From: a virus
Length of the DNA stretch: 52,578 nucleotides
Virus record (IMG/VR): IMGVR_UViG_3300025141_014116
Location: 1-52,578 of that record
Strand: one strand, 5' to 3'
The notes under the pieces were generated by a model, which searched no databases, had not been told where the DNA came from, and worked only from the letters and a program-made list of their open reading frames with translations. Below, piece after piece: positions 4,431 to 52,493 of the stretch. Numbering within the stretch: the first letter of the stretch is position 1; each line of letters opens with the position of its first letter. A program made the translations under genes and the position numbers.

Positions 4431-4468
4431 AATATATCTTCCTTGCTTTAATAAATAGTTTTATCAAA

Positions 4469-37327: not shown

Positions 37328-37613
37328 TTAAGAGATCAAATAATTGTTCTTTATCATCGGCTGTTAAGCCAAACTGCTCTGATTTTTGTTTTTGAATTAT
37401 CGCCGCCAATTTCACCATTTGTTCATTAGAACGTTGCAGGTTTTCTACATATTTGGCGGCAATAGGCCCGAGGTCCTTCCGGGCGGCGTCGGAAACTTTC
37501 ATATCACTAATCGCATCCATAAGCAATGATTTTGCCATGGCCCGGTCTTCGCGAATATTCGTGGTAGTTTCCCCGATATATTCTTCTAATTTTAAAGGTC
37601 GCCTTTTTCCCAT
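37305..37613 (-). CDS. Small helical hypothetical protein
   Basis: A 102-aa protein I do not recognise. It is charged and helical, with an N-terminal basic patch (MGKRRPLKLEEYIGE) and a long helix (MDAISDMKVSDAARKDLG, then KYVENLQRSNEQMVKLAAII) that may be a coiled coil. It overlaps the sigma factor gene by 22 nt and the amidase gene by 23 nt, so all three are probably co-translated. Genes of this size next to a late sigma factor could encode a transcription cofactor or a tail assembly chaperone, but nothing in the sequence decides. Confidence 0.65.
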   Translation of the reverse strand: MGKRRPLKLEEYIGETTTNIREDRAMAKSLLMDAISDMKVSDAARKDLGPIAAKYVENLQRSNEQMVKLAAIIQKQKSEQFGLTADDKEQLFDLLSEDQSDG

Positions 37614-38296
37614 TTATCTTTAAATACCCTATATCTCTTTCGGAGTTTGTTCAGATTATTAACAACCTGTTTAGTGTTAAGACCGGTGATCTCCCGTAGA
37701 TATAAGTAAATAGCTTTTTTATTGAAAATTTCAATATGATCTGCAGAATCTAAAAGAATACGTACAGCCATCAACACTCGTTTTTCATTTTCTCTTAACA
37801 TAAAAGAGTCCCAAGTATCAATCTCTCCGTATAGAGAAGTCCAAAATTCTTGCTCTGTCCGAACTTGTTCGTAAGTAGGCTCTTGCGATATCAGCTTTTC
37901 ATCGAACTGGCAGAGGATATCCTCCATAAAAACTTCTATGCGGTTGCGCTTTTGGGTCTTTTTTACCTGGTGTATAAACCAATTTTTAGTTACCACACTA
38001 AAATAAGAAAATGCTTTGGACCCCTTTGAGGGATCATACTTATTAAGAATAGTGGTGAGCCAGATTTTACAATCGTCTTTAAGATAGTCAATGTTGGGCA
38101 GCGTTGTAAATTTATATGTATAAATTATTTTATCGACCATCTGGTCGAAGGCCGGCTGAATATATTCTATGTATAGTTTAGTTCGAAGTTCGCGGTCCTC
38201 TGTGTTAGAGTACTTAACTATTGCATCTTCGTGTACTTGGGTGAAATAATGATTTTTATTCCGTTTCTTTCTCTTCTTCTTCGGTAAGGTCATCAA
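37592..38296 (-). CDS. Late-transcription sigma factor, gp55-like
   Basis: A 234-aa protein with sigma-70 region 2-like features. Residues about 35-120 contain LNKYDPSKGSKAFSYFSVVT, then KNWFIHQVKKTQKRN, the core of a sigma region 2 that binds RNA polymerase and the promoter -10 region. This arrangement resembles T4 gp55 and its cyanophage homologs. The C-terminal part (IFNKKAIYLYLREITGLNTK, then NNLNKLRKRYRVFKDKW) looks like a helix-turn-helix. It overlaps the upstream membrane-protein gene by 41 nt. MM at the start allows ATG 38296 or 38293. It would direct host RNA polymerase to late promoters such as the candidate before gp25. Confidence 0.78.
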   Translation of the reverse strand: MMTLPKKKRKKRNKNHYFTQVHEDAIVKYSNTEDRELRTKLYIEYIQPAFDQMVDKIIYTYKFTTLPNIDYLKDDCKIWLTTILNKYDPSKGSKAFSYFSVVTKNWFIHQVKKTQKRNRIEVFMEDILCQFDEKLISQEPTYEQVRTEQEFWTSLYGEIDTWDSFMLRENEKRVLMAVRILLDSADHIEIFNKKAIYLYLREITGLNTKQVVNNLNKLRKRYRVFKDKWEKGDL

Positions 38297-39346: not shown

Positions 39347-40213
39347 CTATCTGTTTCTCACAGATAATTTAACCTGTTTATTCCACTCCCTAAAATTTTC
39401 TATCACATACTCAGGGTTTGGATGCCATTCGTAGGCAGACAAAAACAAAACAGGGGTATCGAGGGGATTCCAGTTGTCTAAATAACGTAGTTCGTTTTGG
39501 GGCCTCGACCATACAACATGGGGCGCCCCGCATAAGCTCGCTAAGTGCATTGGCCCCGATGAGGGACCGAAGGCGGCCTCACAATTATGCAGAATATCAA
39601 CTAATTCGGTGAGGGGGGCGCCCCTTAAATCATCTGTTCCGGGGAGGACCTGGGCCTCCGCTTGAGATCCCATGCACGCAACGGTGTGCCCCTCTTTTGT
39701 ACATAACTCTAATAATTCCTCCCATTTAGCCATACTCCAGTTATCTTCCTTCCGGATCGAGCGAGTTCGGATATGAAAAATATAATCATATTTCCGCCGT
39801 TGGCAAGAACCATAACGAATATAATCCGGGACGATCGAAGCATTCGCGAGACTCACAGAGTCTTCAAAACTAGTAATACCATCGTTGGGGATACCAATGC
39901 GCCGCGGCAATAAGACACTAGTACCAGGACTTACAAGCAGCTTTTTGTGTTGTGTAAATAAATCTTTTAAGCATCGTTGTATATCACAGCCGCGACGAAA
40001 CCACTGGTCAGACGGGCCTCCAGGTGGTTCGTAATGTAAAATAGAAGAGGCAAAATCTTCATAAAGAAGGCTCGAGGATTCTCGACAAATTATCACCGTT
40101 GTGTCGTAGTGTTTGGCCAATGAGCGCAGATATGCCTGCCACGCAAACAATTCCCATCCAAATTCTCCTACCCACGGCCCAGCAACTAATGTTGATTTAG
40201 GCTGGTCGTTCAT
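39347..40213 (-). CDS. GT9-like glycosyltransferase
   Basis: A 288-aa GT-B glycosyltransferase related to ADP-heptose:LPS heptosyltransferases (family 9). The N-terminus has WVGEFGWELFAW. The donor-binding C-terminal half has LTELVDILHNCEAAFGPSSG then PMHLASLCGAPHVVW (about residues 201-235), the family hallmark. The preceding strand IFHIRTRS matches the phosphate-contacting loop. Length is a little short for the family (about 340). It is the last gene of the sugar cassette and overlaps the previous gene by 17 nt. The likely role is transfer of a sugar to a phage- or host-surface glycan; the donor cannot be read from sequence. Confidence 0.78.
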   Translation of the reverse strand: MNDQPKSTLVAGPWVGEFGWELFAWQAYLRSLAKHYDTTVIICRESSSLLYEDFASSILHYEPPGGPSDQWFRRGCDIQRCLKDLFTQHKKLLVSPGTSVLLPRRIGIPNDGITSFEDSVSLANASIVPDYIRYGSCQRRKYDYIFHIRTRSIRKEDNWSMAKWEELLELCTKEGHTVACMGSQAEAQVLPGTDDLRGAPLTELVDILHNCEAAFGPSSGPMHLASLCGAPHVVWSRPQNELRYLDNWNPLDTPVLFLSAYEWHPNPEYVIENFREWNKQVKLSVRNR

Positions 40214-41048
40214 AGATCTCTCTGAAATCTTCGATTCCCTCTAGATGCTCTATCCATTGAGGCAGTGTGTCTTCTCTATGAAAAAGGCGACCCTGCTCAT
40301 CACCATGGGATTGACCCTTTGCAATATGAAATAAATTGCGATGACCGTACGTTTTAGCACAGTAGTCTAACCAGTAGTCTTCGTCTTCTAACGAAACTCG
40401 TTGATATACATCTCGCATCCACTGAACCTTATGATTTTGGTTATGGTTATATTCAGTCATCCAAAACTCTTCTTTCGCATAAGGATTACATAAGAAAGAG
40501 AGATGATGCATTAGACCTGTGCGTATCTGATTTTGTGGGGGGGATGACCAAACTTGTGTGGGCACAAAATAATCATTATCCTTTTGAATTTTCCACAGGC
40601 GGGGGCGGCCGGTGGATTGATTGAGGTATCGATGAAGATTAATATAGTAGAACCTCTCATTAAACAAGACTGAATCATACTTCGACTCTTCTACTATTTT
40701 TTTCACGTCGTCGATGGTTTCTTTGCTATAAAACTCATCATCATCGAGGAGCCATAGCCAATTTCCGGGTTGAAAATATTCACTTTGTTGGAGCATCTTG
40801 TTCAAAGTCACATTCTTAGTAGTGACATGGTTTCCTTGATGTTCAACAGTAACAAACTTAACCGGATATTCTTTAAAAATCTCTAGAGTTTCATCCTCAT
40901 ATTTGCGCATGTTATCAGTATGTGCCTCCACACATACCAATACTTCATCACACATATATGCAGCCTGCTCCATTACCGGGCGAGCAAAGGGGCCTGAGCC
41001 CCATGCAAATATAAGGCCCGTAATTTTAGCTTTCTTTTCTTCTCTCAT
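40197..41048 (-). CDS. GT2-like glycosyltransferase with DDD motif
   Basis: A 283-aa protein of GT-A type. The metal-binding motif is WLWLLDDDEFYSKETI (Asp102-Asp104), preceded by a nucleotide-binding start (ITGLIFAWGSGPF) and a strand-turn (VLVCVEAHTDN). The C-terminal half is unusual, rich in aromatic residues and His (HNQNHKVQWMRDVY, HIAKGQSHGDEQGRLFH). No membrane anchor is present, so it is probably cytosolic. A 22-nt gap and an AGGATATT ribosome binding site precede it. The exact family is uncertain. Confidence 0.65.
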   Translation of the reverse strand: MREEKKAKITGLIFAWGSGPFARPVMEQAAYMCDEVLVCVEAHTDNMRKYEDETLEIFKEYPVKFVTVEHQGNHVTTKNVTLNKMLQQSEYFQPGNWLWLLDDDEFYSKETIDDVKKIVEESKYDSVLFNERFYYINLHRYLNQSTGRPRLWKIQKDNDYFVPTQVWSSPPQNQIRTGLMHHLSFLCNPYAKEEFWMTEYNHNQNHKVQWMRDVYQRVSLEDEDYWLDYCAKTYGHRNLFHIAKGQSHGDEQGRLFHREDTLPQWIEHLEGIEDFREIYERPA

Positions 41049-41070
41049 AAGAATATCCTATTTTAACATA

Positions 41071-41988
41071 TTAAAGCTGGTTTTTCAACCAGTCAATGAA
41101 TTCAATTTGTGCTTTCCAGCCGAGCCGTTGATGAATCTTGTCACAGTTGGCCAATGTTGCAGCTGCTTCGCCGCGGCGAGGGGGCAGAAATTCGCAGGGG
41201 GCATCGATTAATTCAGCAATTTCCAAGATAGAGGTGTTGACTCCGGTACCTACATTAAACAATTCCCCGAAAACCTTCCGATTAGTCGTCTCCAGACATG
41301 CTATATTCGCCTGTACGACGTCTGAGACATGTGTGAAATCACGTCTTTGTCGCCCATTTCCCACGATTGTAAGAGGTTGGTTGTGTTTTTTTTGTTCTAA
41401 AAAGAGGCCTATTACCGGCGCATATTGCCCTTTTAAGGGCTGTCGGGCTCCATATACATTAAAATAACGTAATATTACTGTCTGAAGGCCGAACAAAGCA
41501 GTATACATAGAACACATATCTTCCCCTGCACACTTAGTAACTGAATATGGAGTTAGGCAATCCCGGGGCATCTCCTCTCTCAGCGCCGGAGGGGGCGGGT
41601 TCACAAGGCCATAAGCTGATGAAGTAGACGAATAAACAACTCTATCTACCAGGTGCTCCCGAGCAGCCTGTAGGACGTTACAGGTCCCTAGAACGTTAAC
41701 TTTCGTAGTGGCCCGAGGGTCCCGAATAGAAGGTTGTATACGAGATCTAGCTGCAAGGTGAAACACAGCGTAAACGCCATCAAATAAAGGATATATTTTT
41801 TCGTAATCACAGATATCATAAGCATAGTATTGAGCCTTATCATTGTAATAAAATTTACTATTCGATGTCGCCGATAAATCGTCGATTACTACCACTTCAC
41901 AGCCTTTCTCAATTAACGCATCAGTAATATGGCTTCCGATAAAGCCGCAGCCGCCTGTTACCAAAACTTTATTCATAGATGCAAACAT
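41071..41988 (-). CDS. NAD-dependent sugar epimerase/dehydratase (UDP-hexose 4-epimerase-like)
   Basis: A 305-aa extended short-chain dehydrogenase. The Rossmann motif TGGCGFIGSH is at 11-20, the active-site region is VYSSTSSAYG, and Tyr148/Lys152 form YSVTK. Later motifs (RYFNVYGARQPL, DFTHVSDVVQANI) match UDP-glucose or UDP-GlcNAc 4-epimerases. The product is likely a C4-epimerised nucleotide sugar. The start at 41988 gives MFASMNKVLV. Met5 at 41976 would reduce the overlap with the upstream gene and gives the canonical beginning MNKVLVTGG, so it may be the true start. Confidence 0.85.
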   Translation of the reverse strand: MFASMNKVLVTGGCGFIGSHITDALIEKGCEVVVIDDLSATSNSKFYYNDKAQYYAYDICDYEKIYPLFDGVYAVFHLAARSRIQPSIRDPRATTKVNVLGTCNVLQAAREHLVDRVVYSSTSSAYGLVNPPPPALREEMPRDCLTPYSVTKCAGEDMCSMYTALFGLQTVILRYFNVYGARQPLKGQYAPVIGLFLEQKKHNQPLTIVGNGRQRRDFTHVSDVVQANIACLETTNRKVFGELFNVGTGVNTSILEIAELIDAPCEFLPPRRGEAAATLANCDKIHQRLGWKAQIEFIDWLKNQL

Positions 41989-42631
41989 GCTTATGCCACT
42001 CCTTTACCATACCTACGCGAACGCTAACAGCGTGACGATCCGATTCATTGCGAAGAAAGATATGTGTCAACACTTTTTGACTACAGGCAAAAAACGATAG
42101 TAACCCTTGGGGACCGTAAAAATTAGATGCTGCTGCAATCACTGAGAAACTCTCCGCTATAGTCGTCTTATTACGTAGGTCTACATAATTTCGATCGCCA
42201 AGAAGATCCAACGATTCATCATCCGTTCCCACGATTGCTAGAGGAAGGTCTGAAGCAATATGCTTTACATCCCCTAGGTATAGGCGGCGCCACGCTTGAT
42301 TGATGCCCGAACTGAGCTGCACAACGTTATAGGCCTCAGGTAACGTTTTTGCCGCATATGGGGGCAAATCAAATTGAGGGTATGGTTCCCACGTTTCATG
42401 GTCCTCCATGTAACCGTTCACACAGACTTGATCAAGGGGGTCTTTTAGTAGTTCCACGGGAACCTGTGGGTATAAATTATAGATTTCTTGGATTGCGGAA
42501 TATACATGTTGATGTTTTGAGTAGTGCTGTACCCTGGCGATGTTGTCAGTGTTTGCAATGAGCTTTAACACTATCATAAATGCATCGCCTAACGTGCCGC
42601 GGGCGTAAATAGTTTGTTTACTTTTGGTCAT
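41969..42631 (-). CDS. Short GT9-like glycosyltransferase (putative, reduced)
   Basis: A 220-aa protein. The N-terminal strand TIYARGTLGDAFMIVLKLIA resembles the opening of GT9/heptosyltransferases (G-x-L-G-D). A later region (FSVIAAASNFYGPQGLLSFF) resembles the donor-binding motif, but the Ser-Gly-x-x-H segment is changed to GPQGLLSFFAC. It is about 100 residues shorter than typical members and could be a reduced, accessory or inactive version. It overlaps the epimerase start and the GT8-like gene (4 nt). Confidence 0.5.
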   Translation of the reverse strand: MTKSKQTIYARGTLGDAFMIVLKLIANTDNIARVQHYSKHQHVYSAIQEIYNLYPQVPVELLKDPLDQVCVNGYMEDHETWEPYPQFDLPPYAAKTLPEAYNVVQLSSGINQAWRRLYLGDVKHIASDLPLAIVGTDDESLDLLGDRNYVDLRNKTTIAESFSVIAAASNFYGPQGLLSFFACSQKVLTHIFLRNESDRHAVSVRVGMVKEWHKHVCIYE

Positions 42632-43317
42632 CCATAAATTTTGGCATAATCATGGCGGAGCTGTTCAGAGCCCGTGCGCACGCCGCTGTCAAAAACTCCC
42701 TGGCCGGCATAATGGATTATATGGGAGGCAAACCGATCAGCGCTTTTATTCCATTTCTCGGAAAACATTGTCATATGATTAAATTTATACCCCAAGTCCT
42801 GGATTTCAAAACCATGTTTGTAGATATTATACCCCAAATGTACATCGTCCTGCCCGGCGCCTTTCCAATAGTCATCATTAATGGTTTGATAGATATCCTT
42901 ATGACACTTTGATGTAATAAAAACTCCTGTATTAATATATTGTTCTTTCCAACCAATGGAGCCATATTGTTGCTGAATGGCTGAAATACGATGTAGCCGG
43001 TCGCCGCGGCGCGTTCCTTTGTCTTCCAAAACAGTGCCGATTTTATTATATTCAACCATCTCAAAAATATTTGGACAATCAGGAGTGAGAAGAAGATCGG
43101 TGTCCAAGATGAGGATCCGGTCATATTCTTCATGCAATTCTCCATGCTTAAGAATACGATAGTGGGAGCGGCCATTTCCTTCTTTGCATCCCGACTCATG
43201 ATCCAAAACCATAAAATCAGCCCCGACTCTATCGGCGTATCTTTTGAACAGTGGATGAGTGATATCGGCATCATCTTGAACAGTTGCATCTGCTCTGGTT
43301 GTAATTAATAACTTCAT
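42628..43317 (-). CDS. GT8-like glycosyltransferase
   Basis: A 229-aa GT-A protein. The DxD motif RILILDTDLLL (Asp72, Asp74) is followed by QYINTGVFITS, the GT8 strand after the donor pocket, and by a C-terminal HYAGQG (His202) that normally supplies the third metal ligand. The features fit family 8 or a related retaining transferase using UDP-hexose. It overlaps both neighbours by 4 nt, so it is translated with the sulfotransferase. No membrane anchor is visible. Confidence 0.75.
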   Translation of the reverse strand: MKLLITTRADATVQDDADITHPLFKRYADRVGADFMVLDHESGCKEGNGRSHYRILKHGELHEEYDRILILDTDLLLTPDCPNIFEMVEYNKIGTVLEDKGTRRGDRLHRISAIQQQYGSIGWKEQYINTGVFITSKCHKDIYQTINDDYWKGAGQDDVHLGYNIYKHGFEIQDLGYKFNHMTMFSEKWNKSADRFASHIIHYAGQGVFDSGVRTGSEQLRHDYAKIYG

Positions 43318-43991
43318 TGGTACCCAAACTCCTTTTGGTATTTCTCTAAATTTGCGAACAAGGATTCCAAATCTATATCATGCGTTGTAAAAAACCCCTC
43401 ATAGACTGTGTCAACCCTTTCGTGTAATGCAACCTGGCTCGGATCTAGTGTTTTATATCGTGTAGCTTTATGTGAATTTCTATAACGATGGGTAAAGTTT
43501 TTCATTTCTTCCCTGTACTCGATCTCGCAAAAGGTACATACTCCTTGAATGGTTTCGTCAAATTTTAAAATAATATCTTCCATCTTCACTACCAGAAGCT
43601 GAGTAGGGTGACGCTCTTGAAGAAAAGTATAAACTTTATGCATCCATTCTATGTCTTCTAGACACCCCTCATAGGTAGCATCGTCCGATAGGTTGGGCGA
43701 ATCTCCATTAGGCTGGCCGCGATATATTTTAGACAGCGCAGTGTCCCGGAGGTCGCGAATAGTCCACAAGACTTTAAGATCCGGATTCAGTGTTAACAGG
43801 CGATCTGCCATTTCAAGTTGTGGCAAATAGACAGTGTCACATTTGCTCAAATAATTAGATGGAAGCTCGGCTCTGTGGAATACCTGCTTATCTTCTACAA
43901 AGGGTATTGCCTGTAGTTCCGGTGCCCCCCTTAAAATCTCCAGCAGCATGTTGGTGCCCGTACGGCCGCAGCTAAATACTAATACGCTCAT
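43314..43991 (-). CDS. Sulfotransferase (PAPS-dependent)
   Basis: A 225-aa protein with the two PAPS-binding motifs of sulfotransferases: the 5'-phosphosulfate loop VFSCGRTGTNMLLEIL (residues 5-20) and the 3'-phosphate strand LWTIRDLRDTALSKI, with Arg79 and Ser87 as expected ligands. It probably transfers sulfate to a hydroxyl of a carbohydrate. The length is slightly short but the family is variable. It sits inside the glycosyltransferase block with 4-nt overlaps, so the sulfated product is probably the cassette's glycan. This is rare in phage genomes in my experience. Confidence 0.8.
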   Translation of the reverse strand: MSVLVFSCGRTGTNMLLEILRGAPELQAIPFVEDKQVFHRAELPSNYLSKCDTVYLPQLEMADRLLTLNPDLKVLWTIRDLRDTALSKIYRGQPNGDSPNLSDDATYEGCLEDIEWMHKVYTFLQERHPTQLLVVKMEDIILKFDETIQGVCTFCEIEYREEMKNFTHRYRNSHKATRYKTLDPSQVALHERVDTVYEGFFTTHDIDLESLFANLEKYQKEFGYQ

Positions 43992-44251
43992 GGTTTGTTT
44001 TTTCCATACATCTTGGTTGACCCTTGTTTATATAGTTTTTGTAGGTGACCGGTCTCAATCATGTGGTTAAGTGATTCGTCAATCTCTTGAATAAGATCAT
44101 TTCTATATGAATTCGCCACATTGGTGATCCGACATGCATCAGCTATTTCTTTATCCGTGGCGTTACTTTTTCTTTTAACATCCTCTGCTGTCCAAATTCT
44201 GATGTTGGCGATCGTCAATTTATCCACTAGATTTCCTATTGTATCAGACAT
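43988..44251 (-). CDS. DUF4254-like small protein
   Basis: An 87-aa protein with the pattern of DUF4254: an N-terminal MSDTIGNLVDKLTIANIRIW followed by AEDVKRKSN, then a second helix (NVANSYRNDLIQEIDESLNH). Proteins of this type occur near bacterial polysaccharide and lipopolysaccharide genes; the function is unknown. It is the first gene after the internal promoter element at 44.28 kb and carries its own ribosome binding site (AAAGGAAG). Helices only, no enzymatic motif. It may be a partner protein for a glycosyltransferase, which is inference. Confidence 0.72.
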   Translation of the reverse strand: MSDTIGNLVDKLTIANIRIWTAEDVKRKSNATDKEIADACRITNVANSYRNDLIQEIDESLNHMIETGHLQKLYKQGSTKMYGKNKP

Positions 44252-44265
44252 AGTTCTTCCTTTAC

Positions 44266-44308
44266 TCTTGTTACTTTCTATTATATCAGTCTACAAGAGA
44301 AATTACAA
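44266..44308 (-). repeat. Copy 1 of a conserved promoter-boundary element
   Basis: About 40 bp that match the segment at 51589-51631 with only two or three differences. On the plus strand both read TCTTGTTA, T-rich spacer, then TATATCA and CTACAAGAGAAATTA. On the minus strand the element gives CTTGTAGA, then TGATATAATAG and TAACAAGA, i.e. an extended -10 promoter. It lies between an FkbM-like methyltransferase and the DUF4254-like gene. Two near-identical intergenic copies in a 13-kb cassette exclude chance. Confidence 0.85.
44280..44288 (-). promoter_or_regulatory. Extended -10 promoter for the DUF4254-sulfotransferase-glycosyltransferase unit
   Basis: The minus strand reads TGATATAAT, a perfect TGnTATAAT extended -10 box. 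Seventeen bases upstream lies TTGTAA, a reasonable -35. The predicted start site is about 7 nt downstream, followed by AAAGGAAG and the ATG at 44251. This is a host-type sigma-70 promoter, unlike the late motif before gp25, so this unit may be expressed early. Confidence 0.65.
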
Positions 44309-44317
44309 GAGAAATTA
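44294..44317. repeat. Tandem 12-bp repeat upstream of the internal promoter
   Basis: CAAGAGAAATTA occurs twice back to back (44294-44305 and 44306-44317). The second copy of the boundary element at 51.6 kb has only one unit. The duplication lies at the -35 region of the promoter on the minus strand, where it creates the TTGTAA -35. Confidence 0.85.
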
Positions 44318-44329
44318 CAGTTTTCTCTT
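44307..44329. repeat. Inverted repeat (8-bp stem, 7-nt loop)
   Basis: AAGAGAAA at 44307-44314 pairs with TTTCTCTT at 44322-44329 around ATTACAG plus neighbours. It lies just downstream of the FkbM-like gene stop. No T-run follows on the minus strand, so it is not a classical terminator, but it could be an RNA hairpin or a weak transcription pause. Confidence 0.5.
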
Positions 44330-44336
44330 TTCTGTT

Positions 44337-45029
44337 TTATTTTTTTCTCTTATAAACGGCATTATACTTAGCCTTCTCTGCTTTGAAGTTTGTCCCGAAG
44401 TTTTCCGTAGTGACCGTAGCGCACATTTCAACATATCGAGAGTACCAAGGATCCGGGATTTTTTCATAACCCCAGGCCCCAAGGTAGGCAGCAAGAGACT
44501 TGTTCTGATTTTTGCTGTTGTGGATTACTTCGGTCTTTATGTACTTGGGTTTAACAAGATCAAAGTCTGTAGTCATTATAATATCATAATCAAGTTTCTC
44601 TACGTCTGTAATTAGTAAATCAAAGTCTTGGCCGGCCATATCATACTTGACCACCAGTTCTAATAATGTCATTGCATCAACAAGGAACTCGTCGGGGCCT
44701 GTGGGGACTGCGCCGCGGACAATACTGCTTTGCTCCCCTGTTTTACCAGTTTGATGGATAAGAACTTTGCCTTCTCTGTCGAGCGGAAATCCTTGATTAC
44801 CGTGATCAAGTCCTAACTCTTTTTTAGGTGGCGGCGCTGGGTCGGGGATGATAGCTATGGGCTCAAAATAACTCCCTGTAAGATTTTCATAACATTTAGT
44901 AAGTTTATCAAAGCACTCCGGGACCGGCTCGACGAAAATCCCATTCCAACCCATCTCGGGGGCAAGCCACCACATCATATCTGACATTGACTTGCCAACG
45001 TTTGCTCCGAGTTGAATAAAATTAATCAT
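44337..45029 (-). CDS. FkbM-like methyltransferase (divergent)
   Basis: A 230-aa protein with the FkbM-type SAM fold: INFIQLGANVGKSM (residues 2-15) for SAM binding, GIFVEPVPECFDKL after strand 2, and a late FDLLITDVEKLDYDII, where the usual D-x-EG is changed to DVEKLD. Such enzymes O-methylate sugars. It is the last gene of the upstream transcription unit, with a 4-nt overlap to the C-methyltransferase. In frame after its TAA stop, the DNA still codes NRKEKTVISLV...VD before a TGA, a possible remnant. Confidence 0.7.
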   Translation of the reverse strand: MINFIQLGANVGKSMSDMMWWLAPEMGWNGIFVEPVPECFDKLTKCYENLTGSYFEPIAIIPDPAPPPKKELGLDHGNQGFPLDREGKVLIHQTGKTGEQSSIVRGAVPTGPDEFLVDAMTLLELVVKYDMAGQDFDLLITDVEKLDYDIIMTTDFDLVKPKYIKTEVIHNSKNQNKSLAAYLGAWGYEKIPDPWYSRYVEMCATVTTENFGTNFKAEKAKYNAVYKRKK

Positions 45030-46261
45030 TTGCCAATAATCTCGAACTCAGGACATGGAACAATAAACTTGCCACCTCCCTCTAAAAATTCTTCTTCGCG
45101 CTCGACGAACTCTTTAATAAAATGCCAGGGTAACACCAACAAATAGTCTGGCTTGTCTGCACGCATTTCCTTTTCCGATACGATCGGAATATTGGTTCCT
45201 ACTACATATTTGCCAAACTTTTGAGGAGATCTTTCAGCAATTGCTATAATGTCTTCTGTTGTCAGGCCATAATATTGTAACAAGGTGTTTCCCTTCGTTG
45301 AAGCACCATAGCCGTATACTTTTTTCCCCTTCGCGACCTCGGCGCGAATAAAAGAAACTGTTTGTTCCTTCATTGACTCCAACTTTTGAGAAAATTCCTT
45401 CCATACGGCTGGGTCAGAAATGTCCATATGCGCTTTTTCATATGCCAAAAGCGATTCTACTCGAAAGGCACAAACATCACGTAATGGGGTTGTTCCGAAG
45501 GAGGTCTCCTTGGCGCCTTCTTTCTGAACATACACCCGGAAACTCCCTCCATTGGTATCGTTCAATGAACAATCCATAATTTTCAGGCCATGGGCCTCCA
45601 TAAGCTGTTTGATACTGGCAAGAGAATAATAATAAACATGTTCATGGCAAATATTGTCAAAAGCCATCTGTTTTACCATTAAGGGAGTATATGACATCTG
45701 TAGGACCCAAATTCCATCGTCTTCCAAAACTTCTTTCACGTCCTCTATAAAGGGCGCCGGGTCGTCGATATCATAAAACATAGCGATAGTGGTGATAACC
45801 TTACATTTTTTATCTCCATGGCCTGTTCGTTGGTAGGCACGGAGCGAAAAGTAATCTTGTACCACCGAGTCCGCTAGCTGTGAGGAAAACTCAAGAAAGG
45901 AATCTTCGACGGGATCAATTCCCACTTTTGTAAACTCATCGGGTATAAAATTAAACATCGTACCGTCGTTACACGCGATGTCCAACCATACATCGCCGGA
46001 CGAGTATTTAACTCGGCTGGCAGCTTCTTCAGCTATCTCTTTCAATTGATTTGTCATGGAGGCATTTGTCCCAGAGCGGTACCAATAGGTGCCGTACATT
46101 TTATCGGGGTCGACCGCCTGAGTGAGGCGAAGGGCCCCCTTCTTCTCATCTAATATAAGTGTTAGCGGCGCTAACTCCCTCCCTTCGTATTCAACGTCAG
46201 GATCAGCTAAAAAATCCGAAACGTATAAACTTCCTAAGTCTAGTAATATATCAGCCATCAT
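45026..46261 (-). CDS. TylC3/NovU-type sugar C-methyltransferase lacking the zinc-binding cysteines
   Basis: A 411-aa protein with the domain order of C-3 methyltransferases of deoxysugars: SAM motif WLDIACNDGTMF (about 92-103), active-site CHEHVYYYS (about 205-213), and a C-terminal domain with VYGYGASTKGNTLL (about 315-328). In TylC3-like enzymes the N-terminus normally carries Cys pairs that bind zinc. Here the corresponding region (MADILLDLGSLYVSDFLADP, then LTLILDEKKGALRLTQ) has none. The enzyme would add a methyl branch to a dTDP-4-keto sugar, fitting the rmlA/rmlB genes upstream. Confidence 0.8.
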   Translation of the reverse strand: MMADILLDLGSLYVSDFLADPDVEYEGRELAPLTLILDEKKGALRLTQAVDPDKMYGTYWYRSGTNASMTNQLKEIAEEAASRVKYSSGDVWLDIACNDGTMFNFIPDEFTKVGIDPVEDSFLEFSSQLADSVVQDYFSLRAYQRTGHGDKKCKVITTIAMFYDIDDPAPFIEDVKEVLEDDGIWVLQMSYTPLMVKQMAFDNICHEHVYYYSLASIKQLMEAHGLKIMDCSLNDTNGGSFRVYVQKEGAKETSFGTTPLRDVCAFRVESLLAYEKAHMDISDPAVWKEFSQKLESMKEQTVSFIRAEVAKGKKVYGYGASTKGNTLLQYYGLTTEDIIAIAERSPQKFGKYVVGTNIPIVSEKEMRADKPDYLLVLPWHFIKEFVEREEEFLEGGGKFIVPCPEFEIIGK

Positions 46262-46896
46262 TCTCTCCTTTTACAATAAAAATCATTTATTTTCCAGCGT
46301 GCATCTTTATAATAGCCTTTATGTGCTAAATACGCTTCGATCTCTGGGTCATTAAAATTATTCTCTACCACCAGCAAAGATACATCCCACAAATCCAGAT
46401 TTAAGCCCTTAAGTGCATCAAGCTCTGTACCTTCGGTATCAATTGAAATAAAATCAATCTGTGTATCAAATTCTTGTTGTGCCAGTATTGTATCTAATGT
46501 CTTTACGTCCACCATAATTTCTGATTTAGAATTAATGATATGATCGTGTTGTTCGACAAGCCGCGTATCGGGCATTAGTCCACTCACTGACGACATAATA
46601 TTGTGTTTCCCAATATCAAAAACAGTAAAAGGCACATTATTTTGGTTTTCGCTTCCGCATGCGCATCGGACCGACTCTTTACGGATCTTTTGAACCATTT
46701 CATAGTATTGAGGATTGGGTTCGATACATAGGGCGCGCCAGCCGAGCTTTTCAAAGTAGAGGGTGTTAGACCCACGCTCTCCATTAGCGGCGCCCACTTC
46801 AACACATGTCCCGCGCAGCTCGCCAGGGAAATATAATTCTATTAACAAATCAGTACTAAACTGACCATGATATCCGGTTAGTGGTTCGTAATTCAT
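46258..46896 (-). CDS. FkbM family methyltransferase
   Basis: A 212-aa FkbM methyltransferase: TCVEVGAANGERGSNT (about residues 30-45) binds SAM, CIEPNP (Glu59) contacts the ribose, and FISIDTEGTELDALKGL (about 149-165) is the family hallmark. It is a little short for the family but complete. It probably O-methylates a sugar. It overlaps its neighbours by 4 nt on both sides, within the strictly coupled run 44337-49215. Confidence 0.85.
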   Translation of the reverse strand: MNYEPLTGYHGQFSTDLLIELYFPGELRGTCVEVGAANGERGSNTLYFEKLGWRALCIEPNPQYYEMVQKIRKESVRCACGSENQNNVPFTVFDIGKHNIMSSVSGLMPDTRLVEQHDHIINSKSEIMVDVKTLDTILAQQEFDTQIDFISIDTEGTELDALKGLNLDLWDVSLLVVENNFNDPEIEAYLAHKGYYKDARWKINDFYCKRRE

Positions 46897-47612
46897 TGTC
46901 GGAGTTTGTCCTTGTGTCTTTGGAGATATGCAAGTAAATAGTCAATATCTTCTGGGTTGGGAACGACATCATTGCTAGTACCATACAAACGACCACACCA
47001 TGGTCGAGGGATTGGTCGGCCTTTGAAAAATACGTTACAGTTATAATAAAGATCTTGCTCTTGATCTAATGTAAGAATAAGGGCGCCGTCGTTGTAAGAG
47101 GCTCCCATGTTTTTTAGTTCAAAATCCCAGGCCGTGTAGCCGGGCTTTAAAAATTTAAGAAAATATTCCTTTCTCCAAATTGCAGGGGCCAAGCTAGTCC
47201 GATAGGAGGCGTTCTGTCTCATCATAAGAAGACCCTCCTGGTATGGGTCGGATCGATTTTGTATCGTGTTGTCTAAATGAGCCTTTTGAGCGCCGGCTTT
47301 TACACAGCCTTCAAGAAGATCTACCTTCTTTTGTTCTATATGATTTAGTAACACCACATCTTCTACCGTAAAACCAAAATATTCATCTTCTAAGTTTTCA
47401 ATGTACGGAATAAGAGGATCAGTCCAATTGCTACCAAAATTTTCTTGTTTTCCTAGGGATACAAAGTCAAAGCCATCAGGGAGTGGTGCATACTGGCATT
47501 CATCGAATCCAAGGAAAACCACTTCTTGTCCCGGCCAGTATTTTTGATAGAGAGTTACAAACGCTTCTAATAAAAACGAATACTGCGACGACGTGGCTAC
47601 AAACATTTTCAT
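46893..47612 (-). CDS. Putative glycosyltransferase
   Basis: A 239-aa protein. Its opening KMFVATSSQYSFLLEAFVTL, the segment FGSNWTDPLIPYIENLEDEY, and a later LAPAIWRKEYFLKFLKPGY then TAWDFEL recall a group of uncharacterised transferases in polysaccharide loci, where a short DxD-like acidic motif (here FTVEDVV) may bind metal. The C-terminus has FFKGRPIPRPWCGRLY. The assignment rests on pattern and on its place between gmd and an FkbM methyltransferase. Confidence 0.5.
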   Translation of the reverse strand: MKMFVATSSQYSFLLEAFVTLYQKYWPGQEVVFLGFDECQYAPLPDGFDFVSLGKQENFGSNWTDPLIPYIENLEDEYFGFTVEDVVLLNHIEQKKVDLLEGCVKAGAQKAHLDNTIQNRSDPYQEGLLMMRQNASYRTSLAPAIWRKEYFLKFLKPGYTAWDFELKNMGASYNDGALILTLDQEQDLYYNCNVFFKGRPIPRPWCGRLYGTSNDVVPNPEDIDYLLAYLQRHKDKLRQ

Positions 47613-48583
47613 AAGTTATGAACTGCCTTCGTTAGTTCAATATCGTTGGTGACCATCCTAGAAACCATTTCATCAAACGATACTTTCGGCTTCCAACCTA
47701 AAATGCGATGCGCCTTTGAGCAATCACCGATTAACACATCTACTTCTGCAGGTCGCATGAAAGCCGGGTCTTGTACCACATAACGCTCCCAATCCGCAAT
47801 TCCCACACAAGCAAAAGCCTTGCTTAAAAAGCTTTTAATAGAATGACTTTTGCCAGTTGCTATAACATAATCATCAGGAGTATCCTGCTGGAGCATCAGC
47901 CACATAGCTTCTACGTAGTCCGGGGCATATCCCCAGTCACGCTTAGCCTCGATATTTCCCAAGGCTATGTGGTCCGCCAAGCCTAGGTGGATTTGAGCGA
48001 CACCATCCGTAATTTTACGGGTGACAAATTCCTTGCCACGGCGTTCGGACTCATGATTAAACAGAATACCACTGCATGCAACAATCCCATATGATTCTCT
48101 ATAATTTTTTGTAATCCAGTGCCCGTATAACTTTGAAACCCCATAGGGACTGCGGGGGTAAAACCGGGTCGTCTCAATCTGTGGTGTCTCAGTTACTCTG
48201 CCAAACATTTCAGATGTCGAGGCTTGATAAAACTTAATAGGGCGATCATATTCTCGAATGGCTTCCAGCATCCGTAAAACTCCTAGTCCATCAATATCCC
48301 CAGTCGTCTCCGGAGTATTCCAACTCTCACCCACAAAAGACATGGCGCCTAGATTATAAATTTCGTCTGGTTTTGACTCTTTAATCACCCGTAGTAGTGA
48401 GTTTTGGTCTCCCAAGTCGCCGTTAATAAATGTGATCTGGCCTTCTAGGTGGCCAGTATTTACCCTATTTTTACGGGAAGAGCGGCGCTCCATACCATAT
48501 ACATTATATCCTTTAGTAAGCAAGAAATCTGCCAGATAGCTGCCATCTTGACCATTGACTCCCGTGATAAGGGCTGTTTTCAT
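47609..48583 (-). CDS. gmd: GDP-mannose 4,6-dehydratase
   Basis: A 324-aa enzyme with all GMD motifs: ALITGVNGQDGSYLADFLL (NADP site), FYQASTSEMFG with Thr123 and Glu125, and SPYGVSKLYGHW with Tyr147 and Lys151, the catalytic set corresponding to E. coli Thr132, Glu134, Tyr156 and Lys160. The SRKNRVNTG loop (about 36-44) and NHESERRGKEFVTRKI are family signatures. It turns GDP-D-mannose into GDP-4-keto-6-deoxy-D-mannose, the precursor of fucose, rhamnose, perosamine and colitose. No gene for the next fucose step (fcl) is visible. It is coupled by 4-nt overlaps. Confidence 0.95.
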   Translation of the reverse strand: MKTALITGVNGQDGSYLADFLLTKGYNVYGMERRSSRKNRVNTGHLEGQITFINGDLGDQNSLLRVIKESKPDEIYNLGAMSFVGESWNTPETTGDIDGLGVLRMLEAIREYDRPIKFYQASTSEMFGRVTETPQIETTRFYPRSPYGVSKLYGHWITKNYRESYGIVACSGILFNHESERRGKEFVTRKITDGVAQIHLGLADHIALGNIEAKRDWGYAPDYVEAMWLMLQQDTPDDYVIATGKSHSIKSFLSKAFACVGIADWERYVVQDPAFMRPAEVDVLIGDCSKAHRILGWKPKVSFDEMVSRMVTNDIELTKAVHNL

Positions 48584-49215
48584 TCTTTATCTCCCAAGTT
48601 TCTCAAAACTGTCATGTGGTAGTTGTATTGCGGATATTTAAAAATATCAACTATTTCAAAATTATACTTGCTGCAAATTTTCGGGATATCGTATCTTCCC
48701 GGGATCTCATGGGCTGATTCTACCAATCGATCCAATCCACCCATTAATATTAAAATCCCGCCCTCGGTTAATATGGCTTTTGTTTTGTGTATGGCTGCGG
48801 CTTGACCCCCTTTTTTCAAGGCCTTACTGCTGCCTGTTTCATCTTTAAAATTAAAAAGATAAAAAACGCCGTTCATAAAAATGATATCATACTTTTGGGC
48901 GCCCATCCAATCGGGTATATCGAAATCCATCAGACCAATTTGTTGATAGTGTAAATTATCAGCCACAAAAAGAGGGTTGAGATGTTGCCATGGATCTATG
49001 GCACTGACGTTCTTTACGTAGGTTTTAAAAAAATTAGAGAACCTTCCATTTCCACATCCAACATCTAGCACTGTTTTATCTTTAGAAAAACAATCCTCTA
49101 TGTGGGGCCAAATATCTTTTTCAAAATCCGACACCCTTGGGCGACCCTTGATATCACTGTAATCATTATCATACCAGGAGTCGCAGCCCCTCATCGGGGT
49201 ACTTTTCTTTTCCAT
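48580..49215 (-). CDS. Class I SAM-dependent methyltransferase
   Basis: A 211-aa protein with the SAM-binding motif KTVLDVGCGNGRFSNFF (about residues 47-63), an acidic strand-2 end (VSAIDPW), and later KYDIIFMNGVFYLFNF and LTEGGILILMGG. The substrate cannot be read; a sugar or lipid-linked intermediate is likely from context. It begins after a 72-nt gap and a purine-rich site (GAAGAGAAAAAG) on the minus strand. Confidence 0.75.
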   Translation of the reverse strand: MEKKSTPMRGCDSWYDNDYSDIKGRPRVSDFEKDIWPHIEDCFSKDKTVLDVGCGNGRFSNFFKTYVKNVSAIDPWQHLNPLFVADNLHYQQIGLMDFDIPDWMGAQKYDIIFMNGVFYLFNFKDETGSSKALKKGGQAAAIHKTKAILTEGGILILMGGLDRLVESAHEIPGRYDIPKICSKYNFEIVDIFKYPQYNYHMTVLRNLGDKE

Positions 49216-49226
49216 CTTTTTCTCTT

Positions 49227-49283
49227 CTAATCTCTCTTAAGTTTTAGTGCCAAGGTGGCACCGTGTAAATCATCTAAATTCAT
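49227..49283 (-). CDS. Mini-ORF between rmlA and the methyltransferase
   Basis: An 18-codon frame MNLDDLHGATLALKLKRD fills most of the 72-nt gap between rmlA and the methyltransferase gene. An AAGGAG lies about 13 nt before its ATG, inside the 3' end of rmlA, a workable but long spacing. It contains the palindrome at 49247-49261. It may be a real micropeptide, a leader, or the residue of a deleted gene; I cannot choose. Confidence 0.3.
   Translation of the reverse strand: MNLDDLHGATLALKLKRD
49247..49261. repeat. Perfect 5-bp inverted repeat (GTGCC-5-GGCAC)
   Basis: GTGCC AAGGT GGCAC on the plus strand, the same on the minus strand with loop ACCTT. GC-rich stem, but followed on the minus strand by TAAAACTTAA rather than a T-run, so it is unlikely to be a terminator. 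It could be an RNA hairpin or coincidence. Confidence 0.4.
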
Positions 49284-49287
49284 TGTT

Positions 49288-50013
49288 CTATGTTTTCTCC
49301 TTGTACATTAGCCAATTGGTTGTATGATACGAATCCATCGTGCCGGCGTCGGACCAAACGTCTTCCAGTACGGAATGGCCGCATGCGTCGCGTGCAATAA
49401 AAGCATTATTAACGCTGGTAATCTCATACTCCCCCCGATCTGACGGGGTGGTTCCCTCAATAATATCAAAAACTTTATTGTTGTAAAAATAAATTCCAAC
49501 ACAAGCCAAATTGCTCTCAGGTTTTTCTGGTTTTTCGTTTATCTCGCTGATTTTGTCGCCCTTGAATGTGACAACACCATACCGACGTGGGTCGCATACT
49601 CGTTTAAAGAAAAGGTGGCATTCTTCCTCACTCTTCGCATACGCTTCGACAGCCGATTTCAGGTTGTCTTTAAATATATTATCACCAAGGAGGACTACAC
49701 ACGATGAATCTCCCACAAAGTTTCTGCACAACCGCAGGGCCCCGGCGATGCCGTCGGGCTCATCCTGAACCTTGTATGTAAGGGAGCACCCATGGTCTTT
49801 GCCGGATCCCAATAAAGAAGTAATTCCGGTGGCATGGTCGACTCCCGTTACAATCATAATCTCCTTGATGCCGGCTTCTGTCAACTTACGAAGGGGGTAG
49901 TAGATCATGGGTTCACCAGCAATAGGTAAAAGGTGCTTGTTGGTAACTTTTGTAAGAGGGTAGAGGCGTGTACCTTGACCTCCCGCTAAAATAATTCCTT
50001 TAATATCTCTCAT
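49288..50013 (-). CDS. rmlA: Glucose-1-phosphate thymidylyltransferase (short RmlA type)
   Basis: A 241-aa nucleotidyltransferase: IILAGGQGTRLYPLT (residues 7-21), NKHLLPI with Lys26, VQDEPDGIAGALRL, VVLLGDNIF with Asp111, and WSDAGTMDSY. These are the motifs of RmlA, which makes dTDP-glucose from dTTP and glucose 1-phosphate. It is about 50 residues shorter than E. coli RmlA (about 290 aa), lacking the C-terminal extension. It overlaps rmlB by 14 nt, so the first two steps of the dTDP pathway are linked. Confidence 0.9.
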   Translation of the reverse strand: MRDIKGIILAGGQGTRLYPLTKVTNKHLLPIAGEPMIYYPLRKLTEAGIKEIMIVTGVDHATGITSLLGSGKDHGCSLTYKVQDEPDGIAGALRLCRNFVGDSSCVVLLGDNIFKDNLKSAVEAYAKSEEECHLFFKRVCDPRRYGVVTFKGDKISEINEKPEKPESNLACVGIYFYNNKVFDIIEGTTPSDRGEYEITSVNNAFIARDACGHSVLEDVWSDAGTMDSYHTTNWLMYKEKT

Positions 50014-50953
50014 TATACCACCTTACTGTTGATGCGATACCTTCTTCAAACGATGTTCGAGGAGTCCACCCCAACTCATTTTGAATTTTCGTATTGTCAA
50101 TCGCATACCTAAAATCATGACCTAAGCGATCCGTCACATGTTCTATGCATTCCTCGGGCACAACCTGAAGATGGTGGCATAGAACCTGAATCATTTCAAT
50201 ATTCTTCTTTTCGCAATCAGCGCCCATACAATATGTTTCTCCCAGTTTCCCTTCAGTGAAAACCTTCCAAATACCATCGCAGTGATCCTCAACATAAATC
50301 CAATCGCGCACATTCAAACCAGCTCCATACAAAGGTATTTTTTTCCCTTGAAGCACCGACCGAATAACAGTAGGTATGAATTTTTCATCGTTCTGGTGAG
50401 GTCCATAATTATTCGAGCAATTCGATATGGTGACCGGGAAACCATATGTATGGTAATAGGAGCGCGCAATAAAATCAGAAGACGCTTTTGATGCAGAATA
50501 CGGATTTTTTGGATTATAGGGAGTCTCTTCGTTGAATTTACCCGTATCTCCTAATTCCCCATAAACCTCGTCGGTAGATACATGATGGAATCGCTGCACT
50601 TTTTGTCGACGAGATATCTTCAGCAAATTGTGGGTTCCCACAACATTGCTTGTCACAAAGGAACTCGGGTCATCAATAGACTTATCCACATGCGACTCTG
50701 CCGCCAGGTGTACAACGTGAGTTATACTATGTCGTTCAAATACTTCCAAAAGATCCGACGCGTTACGCAAGTCGACCTCTTCAAACACATATTTTTCGTC
50801 ATCCTGAAAGTCTTTAGTATTTTGGAGGCTGCCGGCATATGTCAAAGCATCTACATTAACCACCTTTGATACCGAATCTCTATGACGATCCAGTACCATT
50901 TTTACAAAATTAGATCCTATAAATCCACATCCTCCGGTTACAAGCAGATTCAT
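50000..50953 (-). CDS. rmlB: dTDP-glucose 4,6-dehydratase
   Basis: A 317-aa extended short-chain dehydrogenase with the RmlB set: VTGGCGFIGSNFV (about 5-17), HLAAESHVDKSI, FHHVSTDEVYGEL with Thr127/Asp128/Glu129, and NPYSASKASSD with Tyr152/Lys156. It also carries SNNYGPHQNDEKFIP and DWIYVEDHCDGI. It converts dTDP-glucose to dTDP-4-keto-6-deoxyglucose. The single-base overlap with the aminotransferase gene upstream and 14-nt overlap with rmlA make a three-step unit. Full-length catalytic residues suggest it is active. Confidence 0.95.
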   Translation of the reverse strand: MNLLVTGGCGFIGSNFVKMVLDRHRDSVSKVVNVDALTYAGSLQNTKDFQDDEKYVFEEVDLRNASDLLEVFERHSITHVVHLAAESHVDKSIDDPSSFVTSNVVGTHNLLKISRRQKVQRFHHVSTDEVYGELGDTGKFNEETPYNPKNPYSASKASSDFIARSYYHTYGFPVTISNCSNNYGPHQNDEKFIPTVIRSVLQGKKIPLYGAGLNVRDWIYVEDHCDGIWKVFTEGKLGETYCMGADCEKKNIEMIQVLCHHLQVVPEECIEHVTDRLGHDFRYAIDNTKIQNELGWTPRTSFEEGIASTVRWYNERY

Positions 50954-51570
50954 TATATTACCTTTACATCCTTAAATATTTCAAACTCCGTCAAATCTCT
51001 ATATGGTGGATCTTCCGGGATATCTGGCATGTGCTCAGGATAATTTTGCATCAGCATGAGACCAAAGGCTGCCTGTTCGGGGGTCATATACATATTCCAC
51101 CCCCCTTCATCCATCTGATCTTCATGATACATCTTGGCAGAGCGCCCTTCATAGCGGCGCGCTTTTAGCCATTCGACTGCTTCCGCGTTATCTGTTAATA
51201 TGATGCCGCCTTTACCAATTTTGAGATGCTTCTTGATATGAAAAGAAAGACACATATAGGCACCGGGAATATACATCCCAGAAGTAAAGCGCTTGGCCGC
51301 GTCATAAATGGGAAAGGGTTTCAATTGATACGCACCCTCCCACTTTCTCTCATCAAAAATCAGTATTCCCCCCGCTTGTTGTATAGATTGGGGAGTTGAG
51401 AGATAAGTGCGCTTTGGAATTGTAACCTCTTGGTCTGCAACATTATTCCACTTACACGCCAAGAATAATGCATTGGTACAGCTATTCACCGAAACGGCAT
51501 ATGGTGCTCCGGTATAATGAGCTACCTCCTCCTCAAACATCTCAACTATTTTATAAGGACTGTGTAACAT
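50953..51570 (-). CDS. Short DegT/DnrJ/EryC1-type aminotransferase (half-size)
   Basis: A 205-aa protein with the PLP-binding core of sugar aminotransferases: VSVNSCTNALFLAC (phosphate loop), FPIYDAAKRF with Asp90, and SFHIKKHLKIGKGGIILT with Lys114 as the expected internal aldimine lysine. The full family is about 360-400 residues; here the N-terminal arm is trimmed and the C-terminal substrate domain is almost absent (the protein ends in IFKDVKVI). It has a proper start after a promoter element and a stop overlapping rmlB. I see no second half nearby, so it is either a natural short version or degraded. Confidence 0.72.
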   Translation of the reverse strand: MLHSPYKIVEMFEEEVAHYTGAPYAVSVNSCTNALFLACKWNNVADQEVTIPKRTYLSTPQSIQQAGGILIFDERKWEGAYQLKPFPIYDAAKRFTSGMYIPGAYMCLSFHIKKHLKIGKGGIILTDNAEAVEWLKARRYEGRSAKMYHEDQMDEGGWNMYMTPEQAAFGLMLMQNYPEHMPDIPEDPPYRDLTEFEIFKDVKVI

Positions 51571-51588
51571 TGTTCCTTGTCTCCATAT

Positions 51589-51631
51589 TCTTGTTATTTT
51601 CTATTATATCATTCTACAAGAGAAATTATAG
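51589..51631 (-). repeat. Copy 2 of a conserved promoter-boundary element
   Basis: Matches the element at 44266-44308. It overlaps the last codons of the CgeB-like glycosyltransferase gene: that gene's TGA stop is the TG-A of the extended -10 box. On the minus strand, coding ACT-ATA-ATT-TCT-CTT-GTA-GAA is followed directly by TGATATAAT. Confidence 0.85.
51603..51611 (-). promoter_or_regulatory. Extended -10 promoter for the aminotransferase-rmlBA-gmd unit
   Basis: TGATATAAT on the minus strand, with CTATAA at the -35 position (weak) and 17-bp spacing. The start site should be about 7 nt downstream, and GGAGACAAGGAAC precedes the ATG at 51570. The same box is found at 44.28 kb. It overlaps the upstream gene's stop codon. 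Confidence 0.62.
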
Positions 51632-52493
51632 TTCTAGCCCAATTTTTTGGCATATACTTTTGAACTGTATTAAAGCCGTGTGTTCGGATCTGTTCTCTCT
51701 TGTCTTCGTTGCTAAGATAATATCTTATTTTTTCTTGGAGTTCGGCCGGCGACGTAAAGATGTCGAAATCCTTTCCTGGTGTAAAGAGATCATCCATCCC
51801 CTTCCAGGGTGTCGTAAGCAAAAAGCCTCTGGCGGCTAGAATCTTATATAAGCGCACAGACGTTCCTTCTGTGGAAGTATGTGAGAAATTAAGATTTATT
51901 TTGCTCTGATTGACCACCAGGTTGTGCTCTAGACCATGGACGTTCTCAAAATGCTGAAATTTTACTGTGTCGAGGTACTTTTGGCGGTCTGTATGTGTGC
52001 CCGTGGGGGCTCTTACATTTCCGATAAACGTTACATCATATTTTGAGTCACAGTCGGGGAGGGGATAATTCATCTTGTCGTCCGGACATTGAGGGATAAA
52101 TTCCGAATTAGGATTATATTTAGCCGCCTCCTGTACAACACCCTCAATTCCTCCCACAAAGTACGATACTTTTTTGATTTTCTCTATCAACTCAATGTTA
52201 AAGTTATTCATTCCGTCCATATACCAAAGCACACTAGACCCTATAAGGTTGGCCGCGTCCACGACGCGCGAGGCCATCATATTACACTTACTAAAAAGGA
52301 TGATATGAGGCTGAATTTCATTGATCTTTTCTATTAGATCATCATCCCGTGATTTAGCAGACGAGTACTCTCGTAATTTTGCTCGATAATCGTATGCATA
52401 AGTCTCCCAGCTATTGTCGAGGAATCCTCGAGCTTGGGCCACATTTGTTGAGTTGGGGGTAAAAACTCCCACAAACAGTATTTTACGGCTCAT
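51609..52493 (-). CDS. CgeB-like glycosyltransferase (GT-B)
   Basis: A 294-aa GT-B protein. The N-terminal half has KILFVGVFTPNSTNVAQARG and IQPHIILFSKCNMM. The C-terminal half has YDVTFIGNVRAPTG, NLNFSHTSTEGTSVRLYKIL, then AARGFLLTT and a final DFDIFTSPAELQEKIRYYL, the pattern of CgeB and family 1-type glycosyltransferases. It probably adds a sugar to a surface glycan or protein. An AAAGGAG ribosome binding site lies in the last codons of the upstream gene. Its 3' end overlaps the promoter element. Confidence 0.75.
   Translation of the reverse strand: MSRKILFVGVFTPNSTNVAQARGFLDNSWETYAYDYRAKLREYSSAKSRDDDLIEKINEIQPHIILFSKCNMMASRVVDAANLIGSSVLWYMDGMNNFNIELIEKIKKVSYFVGGIEGVVQEAAKYNPNSEFIPQCPDDKMNYPLPDCDSKYDVTFIGNVRAPTGTHTDRQKYLDTVKFQHFENVHGLEHNLVVNQSKINLNFSHTSTEGTSVRLYKILAARGFLLTTPWKGMDDLFTPGKDFDIFTSPAELQEKIRYYLSNEDKREQIRTHGFNTVQKYMPKNWARTIISLVE

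What the first reader, a model, noticed from the sequence alone, without database searches (positions are those of the whole stretch)
44266..44308. Two near-identical promoter-boundary elements partition the sugar cassette
A ~40-bp element occurs at 44266-44308 and 51589-51631 with two or three differences, in the only substantial gaps that bracket the cassette's transcription units. Each carries TGATATAAT on the minus strand and is followed by a ribosome binding site and ATG. Dense ATGA-coupled genes elsewhere have no such gap. The pattern suggests a portable 'gene end plus promoter' unit that lets cassettes be swapped by homologous recombination and expressed with host sigma-70 polymerase early in infection. 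I know of no description of such an element in phage sugar cassettes.
Basis: partly seen in the sequence, partly recalled or inferred. Interest (0 to 1): 0.72.

Follow-up and report, generated by a model that had tools for sequence, protein, structure and literature searches.

The report
Duplicated host-type promoter in phage cassette
A T4-like phage carries the same short promoter sequence twice in its sugar-gene cluster, and one copy includes a leftover scrap of a glycosyltransferase gene end, which suggests the promoter was copied once to split the cluster into two transcription units; this resembles promoter cassettes already described in T4-like phages.

Summary
The repeat is real: 40 of 43 bases match (44263-44305 and 51586-51628, minus-strand sense), far beyond chance. 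Both copies carry an extended -10 box TGNTATAAT, then a ribosome site and ATG, in otherwise tightly packed genes. The claim that these are the only substantial gaps is wrong.

Anatomy points to a duplication. In copy 2, the first half of the repeat is the coding 3' end of a glycosyltransferase gene (..TIISLVE-stop; the stop TGA lies inside TGATATAAT), and homologues align through it. In copy 1 the same DNA is a non-coding remnant between an FkbM methyltransferase gene and a DUF4254 gene. Those two genes abut directly in two syntenic phage cassettes that lack the element. So copy 1 is most simply a derived copy of the glycosyltransferase-linked promoter, dropped into a conserved junction. It gives the DUF4254 block its own start.

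No third copy was found in this 52.6-kb record, in related phage contigs, or by exact search of large viral and genome collections. Portability for swapping cassettes is unsupported, and synteny speaks against it at copy 1. Nor are such elements undescribed: T4-like phages have PeSLs (promoter plus stem-loop cassettes). This element lacks the terminator part. Interest is modest.

The parts
51586..51628 (-). Copy 2 of the repeat: coding 3' end of the glycosyltransferase gene, then the promoter
   Evidence: 43 nt, 93% identical to copy 1; sequence
51603..51611 (-). Extended -10 box TGATATAAT of copy 2; its TGA is the stop codon of the upstream glycosyltransferase ORF
   Evidence: ORF 51609-52493 ends here
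51609..51632 (-). Codons ACT ATA ATT TCT CTT GTA GAA TGA (TIISLVE-stop), native C-terminus of the glycosyltransferase that forms the upstream half of the repeat
   Evidence: translation; homologues in G006 and G008 align to residues 294 and 292
51571..51602 (-). Leader with ribosome-binding site (AAGGA) before the DegT-type aminotransferase ATG at 51570
44263..44305 (-). Copy 1 of the repeat, wholly intergenic (gap 44252-44336)
44280..44288 (-). Extended -10 box TGATATAAT of copy 1; -35-like TTGTAA 17 nt upstream (44303-44308)
44286..44321 (-). Non-coding remnant of the glycosyltransferase gene end, with a 12-bp tandem duplication (reads TVISLVISLVD-stop); the duplication builds the TTGTAA -35
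   Evidence: compare
44252..44279 (-). Leader with ribosome-binding site (AAGGAAG) before the DUF4254 ATG at 44251
44337..51570 (-). Inferred transcription unit 1: DegT aminotransferase, SDR, nucleotidyltransferase, methyltransferase, GDP-mannose dehydratase, unknown, FkbM, C-methyltransferase, FkbM
39347..44251 (-). Inferred transcription unit 2: DUF4254, sulfotransferase, two unknown ORFs, SDR, GT2, GT9
41060..41088 (-). Third, unrelated promoter-like site (TTGAAA-17-TAAAAT with TG) in the 22-bp gap before the GT2 ORF

Best explanation
The element is a promoter for the host's sigma-70-type RNA polymerase (extended -10 type) together with its short leader and ribosome site. It originally sat overlapping the 3' end of a glycosyltransferase gene, in front of the DegT aminotransferase gene. 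A stretch running from the last seven or so glycosyltransferase codons to the leader was copied once into the junction between the FkbM methyltransferase gene and the DUF4254 gene, about 7.3 kb downstream. There it gives the DUF4254-sulfotransferase block its own transcription start. A 12-bp tandem duplication in that copy created a better -35 (TTGTAA, 17-nt spacer). Shown by sequence: the repeat, the promoter-like motifs, the coding origin of the upstream half at copy 2, and its non-coding state at copy 1. Inferred: promoter activity, time of expression, and the direction and mechanism of copying (replication-linked or short-homology recombination in a T4-like phage).
For: Repeat at 93% over 43 nt. 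Exact TGNTATAAT sits 37-41 nt before two ORF starts, in a genome with under 2% non-coding DNA; the other two exact TGNTATAAT matches in the window lie in coding DNA. Copy 1 has TTGTAA-17-TATAAT with TG. The glycosyltransferase C-terminus WARTIISLVE aligns with WAEKIVDLHE and WAKQIVEIYN of homologues in G006 and G008, so the upstream half is native to copy 2; the same DNA at copy 1 reads TVISLVISLVD-stop outside any gene. FkbM44 and DUF4254 abut in G006 (0 nt) and overlap by 8 nt in G008, with no element. None of the 30 DUF4254 loci or 34 DegT loci examined has the element upstream. One unrelated phage (L054) has a consensus TTGACA-17-TATAAT in a 67-bp gap in front of the same DegT gene, so a separate promoter at this place has arisen more than once.
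Against: No transcription data. Copy 2 has no recognisable -35 at 17 nt (CTATAA), so its activity rests on the extended -10. The direction of copying rests on a short C-terminal match (about seven residues, two homologues at 29-36% identity). The host is unknown, so use of the E. coli-type sigma-70 consensus is assumed. The record is a fragment: sequence beyond 52578 could hold further copies.
Confidence: 0.66

Rival explanations
1. A mobile promoter cassette like the PeSLs of T4-like phages: recombination between copies shuffles, excises or circularises the genes between them (here 44.3-51.6 kb).
For: Direct repeats flank exactly one inferred transcription unit; the phage is T4-like (baseplate wedge and late sigma genes); cassette gene order and content differ among relatives at the same genomic place; PeSLs have been proposed to do this (PMC4503421).
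Against: Only two copies known. The FkbM44-DUF4254 neighbourhood is conserved without the element, so the block was not inserted between the copies as a unit. No intrinsic terminator was found at either copy on the sense strand.
Confidence: 0.14
2. A regulated promoter whose whole 40 nt is held constant because a regulator binds it (for example the CTCTTGT...ACAAGAG inverted arms around the -10), so similarity reflects a shared operator rather than a recent copy.
For: Spacer and leader bases are as conserved as the hexamers; inverted arms flank the -10 in copy 1 and nearly so in copy 2.
Against: The right arm is imperfect in copy 2 (ACAAGAA). The upstream half is explained by coding sequence at copy 2 and serves no coding role at copy 1. 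No further sites in the record or relatives.
Confidence: 0.1
3. An RNA hairpin (TTTCTcTTGTA-loop-TATAAtAGAAA) in read-through transcripts, a terminator or processing site, with the promoter match incidental.
For: The hairpin can form in both copies and its arms do not differ.
Against: Weak and AT-rich; no U-tract after it; fold no better than shuffles for copy 2 (z 0.39) and only modest for copy 1 (z -2.06); no Rfam match; no base-pair change to test covariation.
Confidence: 0.05
4. Chance or convergent similarity of two independent promoters.
For: Both are AT-rich gene starts under similar constraints.
Against: 40 of 43 positions match including non-consensus ones; expected number of such matches about 1e-10 (my estimate).
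Confidence: 0.01

Closest known systems
PeSLs, promoter early stem-loops of T4-like myoviruses (Arbiol et al. 2010 doi 10.1093/gbe/evq006; Comeau et al. 2014 doi 10.1093/gbe/evu129; originals not held, known here through PMC4503421 and my own knowledge)
   Same: Short repeated sigma-70-type promoter sequence between gene blocks in a variable region of a T4-like phage; repeat copies could serve as recombination sites.
   Different: No intrinsic terminator stem-loop found; only two copies; copy 2 overlaps a coding 3' end; no sign in relatives that the copies mediated block exchange.
T4 early promoters and host-like early promoters of T4-like cyanophages
   Same: Host sigma-70-type -10/-35 in short gaps ahead of gene blocks in phages that encode a late sigma factor.
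   Different: Here two promoters share 43 nt of sequence by descent, not just hexamers, and the -35 is weak or absent.
Promoter reuse / putative mobile promoters in prokaryotes (concept known to me from the literature, not read here)
   Same: Intragenomic copy of an upstream region placed before an unrelated gene.
   Different: Those are mostly described from bacterial genomes; here in a phage, with a scrap of the upstream gene carried along.

Membership tests
PeSL (promoter early stem-loop) | Located in a T4-like myovirus | tested here: met
   Baseplate wedge gp6- and gp25-like and late-sigma-like proteins
PeSL (promoter early stem-loop) | Strong sigma-70-type early promoter | tested here: inconclusive
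   Extended -10 TGNTATAAT in both; -35 4/6 in copy 1, 2/6 in copy 2; strength and timing not testable
PeSL (promoter early stem-loop) | Stem-loop acting as transcription terminator | tested here: not met
   No terminator-like site on the sense strand at either copy; only a weak AT-rich hairpin without U-tract
PeSL (promoter early stem-loop) | Several copies, dense in shuffled regions | tested here: not met
   Two copies in 52.6 kb, none in relatives; the record is a fragment
PeSL (promoter early stem-loop) | Recombination between copies exchanges or excises modules | not testable with these tools
   Needs reads or close relatives; synteny argues against it at copy 1
sigma-70 extended -10 promoter | TGNTATAAT at a plausible distance before a gene start | tested here: met
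   37-41 nt before ATG, in non-coding gaps
sigma-70 extended -10 promoter | Transcription starts about 6-8 nt downstream of the -10 | not testable with these tools
   No RNA data
T4-type late promoter | TATAAATA (or the clade's own late motif) at -10 | tested here: not met
   Element has TATAATAG; the clade's gap motif CTATTTAT is absent from it

The most novel reading that the evidence does not exclude
A terminator-less, PeSL-like mobile promoter that arises from a gene's 3' end and spreads with a fragment of that gene, so that phage sugar cassettes gain independent transcription units and the flanked 7.3-kb block can be excised, circularised or exchanged by recombination between copies.
Probability: 0.1. 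Interest if true: 0.55.

Novelty: new member of a known kind. Interest (0 to 1): 0.3.

Why it matters
It gives a legible case of promoter duplication in a phage: because half of the repeat is a coding gene end at one site and a non-coding remnant at the other, the likely source and the derived copy can be told apart, and the target junction is seen without the element in relatives. If transcription is confirmed, it shows how a tightly packed phage cassette splits into separately controlled units by copying one short promoter. It does not reveal a new kind of element.

Tried and rejected
Exact element searches in IMG/VR and GTDB genomes: nothing but two chance hits inside unrelated sequence (L003, L004). 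BLASTN of the 74-nt module against annotated phages: only short chance matches, E 0.6-7. Scan of all related loci at 27/41 identity or better: one chance coding hit. A promoter-like site in G008 at 91843 (TTGTAAAGTGATATAATA) resembles the element in an intergenic gap after another gene, but two mismatches in 18 bases over 128 kb is near chance expectation (my estimate about 0.1-0.3); not counted. Promoter matches followed by ACAAGAG in G003 turned out to lie in coding sequence and were dropped. Repeats inside the cassettes of relatives: none comparable. Rfam: no match. Search for the glycosyltransferase in IMG/VR and GTDB by patterns found no relative; homologues came only from syntenic contigs, plus partial matches in a faecal phage and in G023. 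Reading the original PeSL papers failed, as they are not held.

Full report
The window is a 52,578-base virus record with almost all genes on the minus strand and under 2% non-coding DNA. It is a T4-like myovirus fragment: baseplate wedge proteins of the gp6 and gp25 type, and a late sigma factor-like protein; the best annotated relatives by baseplate protein are a Microcystis phage and Flavobacterium phages at about 30% identity. Five IMG/VR contigs (G001-G005) share the structural genes at up to 73% identity in the baseplate protein, and in those that extend far enough (G002-G005) different sugar genes lie in the same place next to the late sigma module.

The observation. Two 43-nt stretches, 44263-44305 and 51586-51628, are 93% identical. 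Read on the minus strand, both give CTCTTGTAGA[C/A]TGATATAATAGAAA[G/A]TAACAAGA and then a ribosome site and ATG. These are the only exact TGATATAAT sites in the window.

What the repeat is made of. At copy 2 the upstream half is protein-coding: it is the last codons and stop of the glycosyltransferase ORF 51609-52493 (ACT ATA ATT TCT CTT GTA GAA TGA), and the stop TGA is the TGA of the extended -10 box. Homologous glycosyltransferases in two syntenic phage contigs align through this end (WARTIISLVE with WAEKIVDLHE and WAKQIVEIYN). At copy 1 the same DNA, with a 12-bp tandem duplication, reads TVISLVISLVD-stop but lies outside any gene, about 15 nt after the stop of an FkbM methyltransferase gene. 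Copy 1 is thus most simply a derived copy that carries a scrap of the glycosyltransferase gene. The duplication places TTGTAA 17 nt before TATAAT in copy 1, where copy 2 has CTATAA.

The junctions in relatives. Contigs G006 and G008 carry the same cassette in the order GDP-mannose dehydratase, unknown, FkbM, C-methyltransferase, FkbM, DUF4254, sulfotransferase, then later SDR, nucleotidyltransferase, unknown, glycosyltransferase, GT9. There FkbM and DUF4254 abut or overlap, with no element. Copy 1 therefore lies in a junction that exists without it. Copy 2 lies at a junction (glycosyltransferase before DegT) that those two contigs do not have. Across 30 loci with DUF4254 and 34 with the DegT gene, none has the element; nearly all have the preceding gene running up to the start codon. 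One (L054) has a 67-bp gap with a perfect TTGACA-17-TATAAT before DegT, an independent case of a promoter placed at the same gene.

No further copies were found: own record, related contigs, IMG/VR by four exact patterns, GTDB genomes, annotated phages. The record is a fragment, so copies beyond its end are possible.

Mechanism. I take it as a host-polymerase promoter of the extended -10 type, copied once, which divides the cassette into two transcription units (DegT to FkbM44; DUF4254 to GT9). Promoter activity and early timing are inferred from sequence. It does not look like a late promoter of this phage: it lacks TATAAATA and also the octamer CTATTTAT that is concentrated on the sense strand of gaps in this clade. 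A hairpin can be drawn in both copies but is weak and has no U-tract, and no terminator was detected on the sense strand at either copy.

Comparison. From my own knowledge, PeSLs combine a strong sigma-70-type promoter with a terminator stem-loop and recombine to shuffle modules and even form small circles. The present element shares the promoter and the repeat but not the terminator, the copy number or any sign of module exchange; I do not file it as a PeSL. It works like a simple promoter duplication.

Noticed in passing
4451-4458 (-), and gaps in G002, G003, G004, G006: Octamer CTATTTAT on the sense strand about 20-30 nt before late-gene starts; in the window, G001-G004 and G006, 10 of 22 sense-strand hits lie in non-coding DNA and 0 of 3 antisense hits do. 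A candidate late promoter of this clade, different from T4's TATAAATA, to be paired with its gp55-like sigma factor (37592-38296).
   Followed up: partly
L054:4957-4985: Consensus TTGACA-17-TATAAT in a 67-bp gap directly before a close homologue of the window's DegT gene; the other DegT loci examined have little or no gap there.
   Followed up: partly
50953-51570: A short (205 aa) DegT-type aminotransferase, well under the full length of the Pfam model (360), whose 205-aa length is matched nearly end to end in most of 35 viral contigs; likely a distinct phage family rather than a broken gene.
   Followed up: partly
49216-49287: 72-bp gap with an 18-codon open frame (MNLDDLHGATLALKLKRD) overlapping the end of the nucleotidyltransferase gene; may be the remnant of a lost gene.
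   Followed up: no
39347-51570 versus G006 and G008: The DegT-SDR-nucleotidyltransferase block lies upstream of the GDP-mannose dehydratase block in the window but downstream of the sulfotransferase in G006 and G008, so the cassette is rearranged while the FkbM-DUF4254-sulfotransferase order is kept.
   Followed up: partly
G004 (reverse-oriented) 94930-94965: Perfect TTGACA-17-TATAAT only 6 nt before the start codon of the RuvC-like gene, which would give a nearly leaderless transcript.
   Followed up: no
13266-24140, 27947-34792: Very large structural-region ORFs (3624 and 2281 aa) for a T4-like phage, only partly alignable in relatives.
   Followed up: no
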